Of a stretch of DNA of 64,000 nucleotides, positions 60,378-64,000 are shown in pieces. The DNA is from Halorussus amylolyticus (GTDB lineage: Archaea > Halobacteriota > Halobacteria > Halobacteriales > Haladaptataceae): assembly GCF_004143485.2 (NCBI RefSeq), contig NZ_RXOB02000032.1:1-64000 (forward strand), given 5' to 3'. Both the position numbers and the translations under genes were made by a program. Positions within the stretch are counted from its first letter, which is position 1; the number at the start of each line of letters is the position of its first letter. A model generated the notes under the pieces. The model was not told the origin of the DNA. It worked only from the letters and a program-made list of their open reading frames with translations, and ran no database searches.

Positions 60378-60842
60378 TCAATCCGAGCGTTCTTTGATGC
60401 CGGGAAACCGGCCTCGGGCCGTTATCTCTGAGATGTCCATTTCGTACCACACGGTCTCGTATTCCGAAATCGGACTATTGAATACCTCAAGTGCCGACTC
60501 TTCGCCGACGTCGGAGAACAGCGCAGCGACCCGTGCGAGGTCGTCGTCTGGGACTGGGCGAACAGGCCCTTTGGCGACGACGCTCTTCCATTCGTTTTTC
60601 GTGCGCCACTCGTAGGCCGTGAGGCTTGCCACATCTGTCTCGGCAACGAACTGCCGTTTCAGACTCCCCTCGCTCATCAAGAACCGGAAAATGCATCGTC
60701 CACCTTCGTCGTCGTACGCGAACGCGATGGGAATCGTGTACGCCTCACCGTCTTTCGACAGACCCAGTACCCCGAGGCCACGTCCTTTTAAGAATTCTTC
60801 CGTCTCGTACTCGTCCATCTCCACCCCAATCTCTCGTGACAT
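60378..60842 (-). CDS. Pyridoxamine 5'-phosphate oxidase-like (PPOX-fold) protein
   Basis: A 154-residue split-barrel flavin-binding protein. It begins EMDEYETEEFLKGRGLGVLG and has AYTIPIAFAYDDEG, then WKSVVAKGPVRPVPDDD. Such proteins bind FMN, F420 or haem. It is the first of four related genes at the end of this window. The ATG at 60842 is used; 60854 also possible. Confidence 0.82.
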   Translation of the reverse strand: MSREIGVEMDEYETEEFLKGRGLGVLGLSKDGEAYTIPIAFAYDDEGGRCIFRFLMSEGSLKRQFVAETDVASLTAYEWRTKNEWKSVVAKGPVRPVPDDDLARVAALFSDVGEESALEVFNSPISEYETVWYEMDISEITARGRFPGIKERSD

Positions 60843-60937
60843 GCGACCTAGCAACGCCCTCGTTTACAAAGAAAGTTCCGTGGCGTGTTCTCGATTCTAC
60901 GTCGCAGAGAGACACCCGGAGCAGAAAGCCAAATGCG

Positions 60938-61384
60938 TTAACTCGGCTCCATCGACTGACGTCCAGTGATCTGGTCGGGTTTGAGTTCGTAAATTGTCAT
61001 CGAAACTTCTTCGATGTCCTCGTCGAAGAGGCGGAACGCAGGGAACTCCTCGTTGATAACCGTGTCCGTGAATTCCTGTTGTTCAGTCTCCGGTAGTTGG
61101 CGAATCGTCCCACGGATTATAATGCTCCACGTTGTGCCCTCCTCAACTTCGTAGACGACGAACGTCGCGGTCTTTGTTGCCTCCGCGAACGCAACCTTCT
61201 CGCTCTCCGGTTTTGTACTCACTCGGAGAAACATACGCGACCCGTCATAGTAGTAGTTGAGCGGTACGGCGTAACTGTCGTCGTTATCGGCAAGTGCGAG
61301 GACGCCGTGGTCCTGTTTTCGGAGGTGTTGTTCGACTTCCTCCTGACTCATTCCTCCCGTGTATCTGTATTCCACGTGCTCCAT
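60938..61384 (-). CDS. PPOX-fold protein
   Basis: A 148-residue split-barrel protein: MSQEEVEQHLRKQDHGVLAL, then YAVPLNYYYDGSRMFLRVST and EGTTWSIIIRGTIRQLPETE. It matches the same FMN/F420-binding fold, more distant from the other copies. The ATG at 61384 fits the start. Confidence 0.82.
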   Translation of the reverse strand: MEHVEYRYTGGMSQEEVEQHLRKQDHGVLALADNDDSYAVPLNYYYDGSRMFLRVSTKPESEKVAFAEATKTATFVVYEVEEGTTWSIIIRGTIRQLPETEQQEFTDTVINEEFPAFRLFDEDIEEVSMTIYELKPDQITGRQSMEPS

Positions 61385-61837
61385 ACGATGACTACGGTGA
61401 GCAACCAGATAACGTTCATCACACATCTGGGCGACGAATTGGTTGTCACATCACTCAGACTCGACCATCGAAGGGTTTTGCGCCAGTGGCATTTACCACC
61501 GTAGAAGGTGTACCAACGACCATGGGGGGTATCCGATGGGTGCAACTGAGCGAGAGCGAGATGAACGAGTTCCTCGGCACCGGCGGGACCGGAACGCTGT
61601 CGTTTTCGACAGAGACAGAGAATCCACCGTTTTCGGTGCCGGTGTCGTACGGGTACGACGCAGACGGGGAGGCTTTTTACCTGAATTGAGGCGCTAAGGC
61701 CCCTTCCTCAACGAACGAGCGAAGCGAGTGAGTAGGGAGGGGATACAGCGCCGCACAGTTCTCAAACACGTTCGTCGCCCGGCCCACAGGCCTACGCAAT
61801 CGCAACTGTTTAGTACGTTGTTTGCATAACTTATTGT

Positions 61838-61960
61838 GTGGCAACGCGCAAGACCATCTCTATCCGCGACGACCAAGAAGAGTGGATTCAGGAGAACCAC
61901 CTGAGCCTGTCCTCGTTCGTCCAAGAGAAACTCGACGAACTCATCGAAGAACGCTCGTAG
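61838..61960 (+). CDS. Short ribbon-helix-helix-like protein of the TnpB element
   Basis: A 40-residue protein from GTG at 61838: RKTISIRDDQEEWIQENHLS, then SFVQEKLDELIEERS. The beta strand followed by two helices is the ribbon-helix-helix layout. It ends directly before the tnpB ATG. Such small genes are often found upstream of haloarchaeal tnpB and may repress it. Confidence 0.72.
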   Translation: MATRKTISIRDDQEEWIQENHLSLSSFVQEKLDELIEERS

Positions 61961-63175
61961 ATGAACTACAACTACAGGTATCGACTTCGACCGTCCGACA
62001 CGCTCGAAGCACAGTTAGCGTGGACTGTCGATACCTGTAGACAGGTCTACAACCACTTCCTTCACCGACTCAACCGAACCGACGACACCTCGGCGTACTC
62101 CGAGCAGAAACGCCTGCCGAGTCTCAAGAAGTGGTGGAACGACCTGAAACACGTTCACTCGAAGGTTCTTCAGAAAGCCGTTCAACGGTTGTACGACAAC
62201 CTCTCGACGCTCCGTGGGCGCAAAGACAACGGCTACCGCGTCGGGACGCTCACGTGGAAAGCACCGGACGAGTACCGCAGTTTCACCTACAGTCAATCCG
62301 GCTTCAAGCTCAAGAACACGAGCGGTCGGACGAAACTGTGGCTCTCGAAACTCGGCGAAATCCCGCTCACCCTCCACCGCGACCTGCCCGACGACGCCGA
62401 CATCAAAACCGTCACGGTCAAGCAGGAACCGACTGGGAAGTGGTATGCCATCCTCGGCGTCGAAACCCCCGACGACCTGCCGGAGAAACCGGAAAAATCC
62501 GAGAAGTGCGTCGGTATCGACGTAGGGATTCTCACGTATGCCCACGACACAGACGGCACCGCCGTCGAATCGCTCGACCTTTCAGACGAACGCGAGCGGT
62601 TGGAACGCGCACAACGAAACCTCTCGCGGAAGGAACACGGGTCTGCGAATTGGGAGAAACAGCGCCGCGTCGTGGCCGAACGTCACGCCGAGTTGAAGAA
62701 CAAGCGCCGCGACTTCCTCCACAAGCTCTCGAACTACTACGCCCGCGAATACGACCTCGTAGCGGTCGAAGACCTTGACGCGAAAGGCTTGGTCGAACTC
62801 CCGGGCAACTCGCGCAACCGCGCAGGCGCGGCGTGGGGGACGTTCCTACGGATGCTCGAATACAAGTGCAAACGCGAAGGAACGCACTTCGTCGCGGTGA
62901 ATCCGCGCGGAACGACCAAAGAGTGTGCGTCCTGCGGCGTTTCGACGGAAAAGCCGCTGTGGGTACGCGAACACTCCTGTCCGGCGTGCGGGTTTGAGGC
63001 GGGTAGAGATGCGAACGCAGCATGGAACATTCTTTCTCGCGGTATCACAAAGCGGTTAGGAGCGGGATACTCCGAATCAACGCCTGTGGAGACTGCGCTC
63101 CCTGTGGATACACTCGTATCTGCAAAGCGCGTCGTTGAAACAGGAAGCCCCACCCTCAAGGAGCGAACCGCGTAA
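61961..63175 (+). CDS. tnpB: TnpB RNA-guided nuclease
   Basis: A 404-residue TnpB/Cas12f-like nuclease. N-terminal WED/REC-type part (1-180) with RPSDTLEAQLAWTVDTCRQV. RuvC catalytic residues: Asp187 (GIDVG), Glu270 (VEDLD), Asp350 (GRDANAAW). Zinc finger Cys322, 325, 340, 343 (CASC...CPAC). All are intact, so it could cut DNA guided by an RNA made from the right end. The C-terminal 45 residues are an extended tail that overlaps the predicted RNA scaffold. Confidence 0.93.
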   Translation: MNYNYRYRLRPSDTLEAQLAWTVDTCRQVYNHFLHRLNRTDDTSAYSEQKRLPSLKKWWNDLKHVHSKVLQKAVQRLYDNLSTLRGRKDNGYRVGTLTWKAPDEYRSFTYSQSGFKLKNTSGRTKLWLSKLGEIPLTLHRDLPDDADIKTVTVKQEPTGKWYAILGVETPDDLPEKPEKSEKCVGIDVGILTYAHDTDGTAVESLDLSDERERLERAQRNLSRKEHGSANWEKQRRVVAERHAELKNKRRDFLHKLSNYYAREYDLVAVEDLDAKGLVELPGNSRNRAGAAWGTFLRMLEYKCKREGTHFVAVNPRGTTKECASCGVSTEKPLWVREHSCPACGFEAGRDANAAWNILSRGITKRLGAGYSESTPVETALPVDTLVSAKRVVETGSPTLKERTA

Positions 63176-63225
63176 GCGGTGAGCGAGTAGGGTGGGGTAG
63201 TTCACTTCCGACTCTCTCTACCGCC
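63148..63225 (+). ncRNA. Predicted omega-RNA scaffold and guide of the TnpB element
   Basis: The right end folds as CCCCACCCT (63148-63156) with AGGGTGGGG (63189-63197), enclosing ACCGC-GTAA-GCGGT (63167-63180). In TnpB elements the RNA ends with bases beyond the element as guide; here these are TTCCGACTCTCTCTACC from 63206. The scaffold probably extends further upstream into tnpB. Inferred from family knowledge. Confidence 0.55.
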
Positions 63226-63612
63226 AGAAAGCGGGAAAAAAGCGGTAATCGACAACCCGGTCGCCTTCGTCACCCACGAGGAGACGAACGACGGGTGGCG
63301 GAGCGTCGTTGCAACCGGTCAACTTACGGAAGTGTCTGATATGCCGTACGATGCAACTGTCGTCCAAGCGATGTGGGCGGTCGACATCCCGGAGGTGGAT
63401 ATCTTTGACCGGTCACCGGAAGACATGCAGTTTCGCCAGTTCCGCCTCGACCCACAAAAGCTCACAGGGCGCAAAGAAGTGAAACACGATTCTTGAGTGG
63501 AGAGCGAGGACAACACCCGGGGGAAAGATACGGACCGGGGTGTTCGACCCATCTCAAAACTATCAGAGGATGAGAAAACACCTTATTGCCTTGGCAGAAG
63601 TTGTCTTTCAGT

Positions 63613-64000
63613 ATGGAAGATGTCCGCTCAATTCAGATGAGTGACGAGGAACGGGGCGAATTTCTGGGCCGGGGTGGAACGGGCGTCATCTCGTTCGATA
63701 CGAGCGGCGACGAACCGCCGTACTCGCTGCCGATCTCGTACGGATACGATGCGGAGACGGCGACGTTCTATTTCCGACTCGCCTTCGGCCCCGAAACGGG
63801 CAAGGGAGACATCGTCGATGAAAATCGTCCGGTTTCGTTCGTCACGTACGACGACACCGAAAGTGGTTGGCGGAGCGTCGTAGCGACCGGTCATCTCGAA
63901 GAGATTACGAAGTCGACGCTCGATACCGATGTCGCCGAAGCGATGCAGCGAGTGGAAATCCCACTCGTGGACGTCTACGATAGACACCCGATCGAATTGA
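63613..64000 (+). CDS. PPOX-fold protein, cut by window end
   Basis: At least 129 residues: MSDEERGEFLGRGGTGVISF, YSLPISYGYDAETATFYFRL, FGPETGKGDIVDENRP and WRSVVATGHLEEI. It is the nearest paralog of the split gene just upstream and shows what that gene looked like. The 3' end lies outside the window. Confidence 0.87.
   Translation, partial: MEDVRSIQMSDEERGEFLGRGGTGVISFDTSGDEPPYSLPISYGYDAETATFYFRLAFGPETGKGDIVDENRPVSFVTYDDTESGWRSVVATGHLEEITKSTLDTDVAEAMQRVEIPLVDVYDRHPIEL

What the first reader, a model, noticed from the sequence alone, without database searches (positions are those of the whole stretch)
61522..63496. A TnpB element splits a PPOX gene exactly in frame; the guide matches the empty site
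Seen: the element begins after ...GGCTTTTTAC (61680) and ends at ...GTTCAC (63205); deleting it restores a perfect in-frame PPOX protein that aligns to the intact paralog 120 bp downstream. Known: TnpB uses a transposon-adjacent motif that matches the left target (TTAC-like for IS608) and a guide copied from the right flank. Inference: the re-sealed site TTTTTAC|TTCCGACTCTCTCTACC would be an ideal TnpB target, so loss of the element would be countered by cutting the empty site. The paralog at 63613 also has TTCCGACTC, but after TTCTAT, so it should escape.
Basis: partly seen in the sequence, partly recalled or inferred. Interest (0 to 1): 0.8.

Follow-up and report, generated by a model that had tools for sequence, protein, structure and literature searches.

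The report
RNA-guided transposon interrupting a PPOX gene
A small haloarchaeal jumping element carrying an RNA-guided DNA cutter (TnpB) sits inside a flavin-enzyme-like gene, and its built-in guide would recognise the uninterrupted gene; this is a clean example of a known self-preserving mechanism, with an unexpected conserved tiny partner gene where the transposase normally sits.

Summary
A 1,525-bp IS200/IS605-type element (window 61681-63205) splits a PF12900 (PPOX-like) gene between TTTTTAC and TTCCGACTC. Removing it restores an open 149-codon gene. Two Halorussus relatives carry the same syntenic gene without the element.

The TTAC reading is strongly supported. Across 99 left ends, the last base of the TTAN flank pairs Watson-Crick with one base of the element's internal guide in 93. 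TnpB clades track the same base. TnpB keeps all RuvC residues, and the right end forms a covarying omega-RNA fold. The only TTAC-plus-guide near-matches in this genome are the element's own right end (TCAC) and a 3-mismatch site, so both tested paralogs escape.

Cutting of the empty site is inferred, not shown. It is the published donor-joint/homing model (ISDra2), so the finding is a new member of a known kind. One caveat: this genome has no TnpA, so TnpB more plausibly acts on incoming or sister empty copies.

The less expected result is in the slot where autonomous relatives carry TnpA. 79 of 80 close TnpB relatives carry there a tiny conserved protein, RHH/CcdA-like or DUF2080, coupled to tnpB.

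The parts
61522..61680 (+). 5' part of the interrupted PPOX-like gene (PF12900), ATG to the TTTTTAC target; the frame now reads YLN-stop just inside the element
61677..61680 (+). TTAC: left target/cleavage site and predicted TAM
   Evidence: TTAN before most aligned left ends; TTAC is the flank of the members of this TnpB clade in the tree
61681..63205 (+). whole IS200/IS605-type (TnpB-only, IS1341-like) element, 1525 bp, no target duplication
   Evidence: both termini shared with independent copies
61681..61755 (+). left end with subterminal imperfect palindrome
61696..61699 (+). AAGG, putative left guide (GL); its last base pairs with the last base of the TTAN flank across the family
   Evidence: 93 of 99 Watson-Crick; assignment to GL by analogy with IS608 is inference
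61838..61960 (+). 40-aa RHH/CcdA-like small protein, GTG start, stop codon directly abutting the tnpB ATG
   Evidence: always next to tnpB, strong purifying selection
61961..63175 (+). TnpB RNA-guided endonuclease, 404 aa; RuvC D187/E270/D350 and zinc-finger cysteines intact by alignment to ISDra2 TnpB
   Evidence: (NF040570, 4.4e-86)
63078..63205 (+). predicted omega-RNA scaffold overlapping the tnpB 3' end; covarying stem and right-end hairpin
63202..63205 (+). TCAC, right cleavage site; the base change from TTAC should protect the occupied locus from self-cutting
   Evidence: protection is inference
63206..63225 (+). predicted guide (first 16-20 nt of right flank), identical to the empty-site target by construction
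   Evidence: guide length from the ISDra2 literature
63206..63496 (+). 3' part of the interrupted PPOX-like gene
63613..64000 (+). intact PPOX paralog (runs past the window end); TTCTAT|TTCCGACTCGCC at the equivalent site

Best explanation
This is a TnpB-only IS200/IS605-family element that inserted 3' of TTAC in a PPOX-like gene of a Halorussus species. Shown: exact termini, the TTAC target, intact TnpB, conserved omega-RNA fold, and uninterrupted orthologs in congeners. Inferred from ISDra2: TnpB processes its own transcript into an omega-RNA whose 3' end reads into the right flank (TTCCGACTCTCTCTACC...). The complex cuts any TTAC-flanked copy of that sequence, that is, the empty PPOX allele, and repair from an occupied copy reinstates the element. 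The occupied locus is spared because its guide sequence follows TCAC, and paralogs are spared by lack of TTAC plus guide mismatches. Because the genome has no TnpA, and haloarchaea carry many genome copies (general knowledge), the relevant action is probably fixation or homing across sister and incoming alleles rather than reversal of excision. Movement would need a Y1 TnpA acting in trans.
For: TnpB family hit NF040570 4.4e-86. Alignment to 8BF8/8H1J with the catalytic D/E/D and cysteines kept. Precise termini from independent copies. Flank-guide pairing in 93 of 99 left ends; in a 38-element subset, 34 of 38 against a maximum of 28 in 100,000 shuffles. TnpB clades follow the flank base: 3 changes on the tree versus a shuffled mean of 11.6. 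The -2 A contact residue (Q80 of ISDra2, PMC10097598) is conserved in all aligned TnpBs, while the loop facing -1 differs by clade. Omega-RNA: 5 pairs with double compensatory changes. Purifying selection on tnpB, dN/dS about 0.11-0.21. Published mechanism (PMC8612924); plasmid gene drive by TnpB (PMC11870625). Omega-RNAs are expressed and processed in haloarchaea (PMC12558985; PMC8303175).
Against: No expression, cleavage or population data exist for this locus. No TnpA is found in the genome. The orthologous empty sites seen differ from the predicted target at the TAM and guide. Other copies of this lineage in the genome are only relics, so the element may be immobile and on its way out.
Confidence: 0.8

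Rival explanations
1. Immobile relic: the element transposed recently using a TnpA supplied in trans that has since been lost, and TnpB is now idle passenger DNA that simply knocked out a redundant PPOX gene.
For: No TnpA in the genome; the only other copies of this lineage are truncated ends; three further PPOX homologs lie within about 3 kb, so loss is tolerated; the interrupted gene still has an undamaged frame, consistent with a recent event.
Against: tnpB, the small ORF and the omega-RNA are all intact and under strong purifying selection across the family. Family-level selection does not prove activity at this copy.
Confidence: 0.3
2. TnpB has been co-opted by the host, for example as an RNA-guided repressor or defence nuclease targeting PPOX-like sequences, rather than serving the element.
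For: TnpB-only elements without TnpA are the usual starting point for domestication (own knowledge); the small DNA-binding-like partner is reminiscent of regulators.
Against: The RuvC triad is intact, unlike nuclease-dead repressors; the site is not shared with any congener in which the ortholog was found; no second site with fewer than 3 mismatches exists in the genome.
Confidence: 0.05

Closest known systems
ISDra2 (Deinococcus radiodurans), IS200/IS605 family with TnpB-reRNA donor-joint cleavage
   Same: TnpB homology over nearly the whole protein, guide from the right flank, TAM equal to the transposition target, donor-joint/homing logic (PMC8612924)
   Different: TTAC instead of TTGAT; no TnpA in the element or genome; a 40-aa small ORF occupies the TnpA slot
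IS608 (Helicobacter pylori)
   Same: TTAC target; internal left guide with the last base complementary to the last target base (IS608 guide from own knowledge)
   Different: IS608 encodes TnpA; the guide here is AAG-N rather than AAAG, and target base 4 varies in nature together with N
ISHma12-type haloarchaeal IS605 elements (TnpA+TnpB)
   Same: Related ends and TnpB (about 78% nt over the aligned parts)
   Different: Flanked by TTAG with guide C and carries TnpA in the slot upstream of tnpB
Halobacterium IS1341-type elements with sotRNA/omega-RNA
   Same: TnpB-only haloarchaeal elements with a processed sense RNA at the 3' end (PMC8303175, PMC12558985)
   Different: No match here to those Rfam families at E<=1; only weak sub-threshold RAGATH-18 and DUF3800-X matches

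Membership tests
IS200/IS605 family (ends and insertion style) | Insertion 3' of a short fixed tetra-/pentanucleotide, no target duplication | tested here: met
   TTAN 5' of most aligned left ends; orthologous empty sites run through without duplication
IS200/IS605 family (ends and insertion style) | Subterminal hairpins with internal guide pairing to the cleavage site | tested here: met
   93 of 99 left ends obey the pairing; right-end hairpin covaries. Strand cleavage not tested
IS200/IS605 family (ends and insertion style) | Y1 (HUH) TnpA transposase | tested here: not met
   None in the element or the genome; present in TTAG-type relatives. TnpB-only (IS1341-type) members are an accepted subgroup, so the claim is limited to that subgroup
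TnpB RNA-guided endonuclease | OrfB_IS605 and TNB domains, RuvC D/E/D, zinc finger | tested here: met
TnpB RNA-guided endonuclease | omega-RNA from the right end carrying flank-derived guide | tested here: inconclusive
   Conserved covarying fold up to the guide start; transcript not tested
TnpB RNA-guided endonuclease | TAM-dependent dsDNA cleavage | not testable with these tools
   TAM inferred as TTAC from flanks and clade association
RHH antitoxin/CopG-type protein (small ORF 61838-61960) | beta-alpha-alpha fold, significant family match | tested here: inconclusive
   CcdA matches to some members, best E 8.7e-4, the one scored singly below the curated cut-off; sequence pattern fits, but the AF2 monomer model (pLDDT 78, pTM 0.37) shows helix only; no PDB profile hit

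The most novel reading that the evidence does not exclude
Haloarchaeal 'TnpB-only' elements are really two-gene elements. The TnpA slot is replaced by a tiny DNA-binding-like protein, RHH/CcdA-like or DUF2080, translationally coupled to tnpB, that controls TnpB or licenses mobility. In addition, the whole targeting system (left guide base, target base, TnpB TAM loop) switches as a unit between TTAC, TTAG, TTAA and possibly TTAT.
Probability: 0.35. Interest if true: 0.6.

Novelty: new member of a known kind. Interest (0 to 1): 0.36.

Why it matters
It is a textbook-clean natural instance, in a haloarchaeon, of a transposon whose RNA-guided nuclease is programmed against its own empty site, with occupied and uninterrupted orthologs in hand for a direct test. 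The family comparison gives a natural code linking transposase guide base, target base and TnpB clade. That is useful for predicting TAMs of uncharacterised TnpBs and for asking how target specificity of two independent machineries co-evolves. The conserved small ORF in place of TnpA is an untested lead on how TnpB-only elements are regulated or spread.

Tried and rejected
Rfam scan: only sub-threshold RAGATH-18 (E 0.11) and DUF3800-X (E 0.69) matches, so the omega-RNA is not assigned to either. Viral contigs (exact left-end pattern) and phage records: no copies. Small ORF: no PDB profile hit, no PADLOC hit, AF2 monomer uninformative. Literature searches for an RHH or CcdA/AbrB-type partner of TnpB found nothing relevant in the held library. 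The idea that solo right ends form a conserved orphan omega-RNA family was dropped: truncation points and flanks differ, and the one shared locus is between two genomes with identical flanking sequence there.

Full report
WHAT IS THERE. The window lies in a Halorussus genome. The congener G021 holds a 390,210-bp contig that matches Halorussus ruber NZ_SBIT01000006.1 in length and position. At 61522-63496 a PPOX-like gene (PF12900) is interrupted by a 1,525-bp element, 61681-63205. The upstream reading frame enters the element and stops two codons in (TAC | CTG AAT TGA), so the gene is broken while occupied. Joining the flanks gives 149 codons, 88% and 85% identical to syntenic uninterrupted genes in two congeners, each with a homolog of the downstream paralog beside it.

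BOUNDARIES. The left and right flanks both end in AC, so a single insertion could not fix the cut to the base; independent copies do. In the same genome a left-end relic (C8:75612) starts with the same CTGAATTGAGGCGC after ...CAATTAC, and a right-end relic (C1:762052) ends ...GTAGTTCAC followed by unrelated DNA. Dozens of left and right ends in the family agree.

TARGET CODE. In the family, the base after the target trinucleotide TTA varies and pairs Watson-Crick with the last base of an internal AAGN motif: TTAC with G (46), TTAA with T (27), TTAG with C (19), TTAT with A (1), 93 of 99 in all. The set was collected by requiring TTA, so TTA itself is not tested by this count, but base four is. 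In a subset of 38, the 34 pairings exceed every one of 100,000 shuffles (maximum 28). T is also enriched at -5 (33 of 49 TTAC sites). This is the IS608-type guide rule and strongly supports TTAC as the target. TnpB sequences fall into clades that follow the same base with one exception, L028, whose left guide and TnpB are both TTAG-type although its flank is TTAC. The residue aligned with ISDra2 Q80, which reads the -2 A, is constant, while the loop aligned with the -1 contacts differs by clade, with Arg in TTAG-type proteins (the loop alignment is uncertain by a residue or two). This links TnpB specificity to the target base by association, not by assay.

NUCLEASE AND GUIDE RNA. TnpB matches NF040570 at 4.4e-86 and aligns to ISDra2 TnpB (8BF8, 8H1J) with D187, E270, D350 and the zinc-finger cysteines in place. 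Across 24 right ends, the last about 128 nt form a conserved fold with compensatory changes in an internal stem and the right-end hairpin, and the single-sequence fold is more stable than all 200 shuffles (z -3.5). In haloarchaea such RNAs are known to be processed from tnpB transcripts (PMC8303175, PMC12558985).

SELF AND PARALOGS. A search of the whole genome for TTAC plus 15 guide bases with up to three mismatches finds only the element's own right end, where TTAC is replaced by TCAC, and one three-mismatch site. The 63613 paralog (TTCTAT, 13 of 20 guide bases) and the C2 paralog (TTCTAC, 14 of 20) lack the motif. Most other homologs read TTCTAC; one (L059) reads TTTTAC but matches only 14 of 20 guide bases. 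A synonymous TTC to TTT change probably created the target in this lineage (inference).

MECHANISM. TnpB has been shown to drive insertion sequences through plasmid populations (PMC11870625). For this locus the cutting itself is inferred. One correction: no Y1 TnpA exists in this genome, although TTAG-type relatives in the family carry one. Loss by excision is therefore not the likely everyday substrate; empty alleles on sister or incoming DNA are. In polyploid haloarchaea this could speed fixation of a new insertion (inference from general knowledge).

SMALL PARTNER GENE. Between the left end and tnpB lies a 40-aa ORF (61838-61960) abutting the tnpB start. Across 80 close TnpB relatives in haloarchaea, 43 carry this protein and 36 the 47-aa DUF2080 protein (NF033496 matches the copy in this genome); the remaining one begins only 106 nt upstream of the TnpB match; in none was TnpA the best match there. 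In 30 of 30 loci found with the small protein, a tnpB match follows in position. Against the eight closest copies, synonymous differences reach 0.19-0.39 while amino-acid differences are near zero. Weak matches to CcdA (best 8.7e-4) and the sequence pattern suggest an RHH protein, but the structure model does not confirm it. Its function is unknown; autoregulation of tnpB or assistance in mobility are the obvious hypotheses. In the two records looked at it is unlisted or called hypothetical.

VERDICT. Observation confirmed; interpretation well supported in anatomy, untested in action, and already described as a mechanism. New member of a known kind, modest interest, with one lead worth following.

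Noticed in passing
window 61838-61960; L143-L172; L173-L252: A 40-aa RHH/CcdA-like ORF is tightly coupled to tnpB throughout haloarchaea and alternates with DUF2080 (or, in TTAG-type elements, TnpA) in the same slot.
   Followed up: partly
99 left ends in L001-L255, e.g. L156 (TTAT with A): Base four of the TTAN target pairs with one internal left-end base in 93 of 99 elements, and TnpB clades follow it: a natural re-targeting series.
   Followed up: yes
G000 C8:75612-75957 (L005), about 12 kb beyond the element: Left-end relic with a DUF2080 ORF and only the start of tnpB, preceded by TTAC.
   Followed up: partly
G000 C1:762052-762176 (L006); L103, L104, L105/L106: Solitary right ends that keep most or all of the omega-RNA region without tnpB; could still supply guides in trans.
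   Followed up: partly
window 63083-63146 and 63137-63204: Sub-threshold Rfam resemblance to RAGATH-18 (an IS607 TnpB guide RNA) and DUF3800-X; perhaps distant omega-RNA relationships.
   Followed up: no
window 60378-60854(-), 60938-61426(-), 61522-63496(+), 63613-64000(+): Cluster of four PPOX-like genes, which may explain why losing one is tolerated.
   Followed up: no
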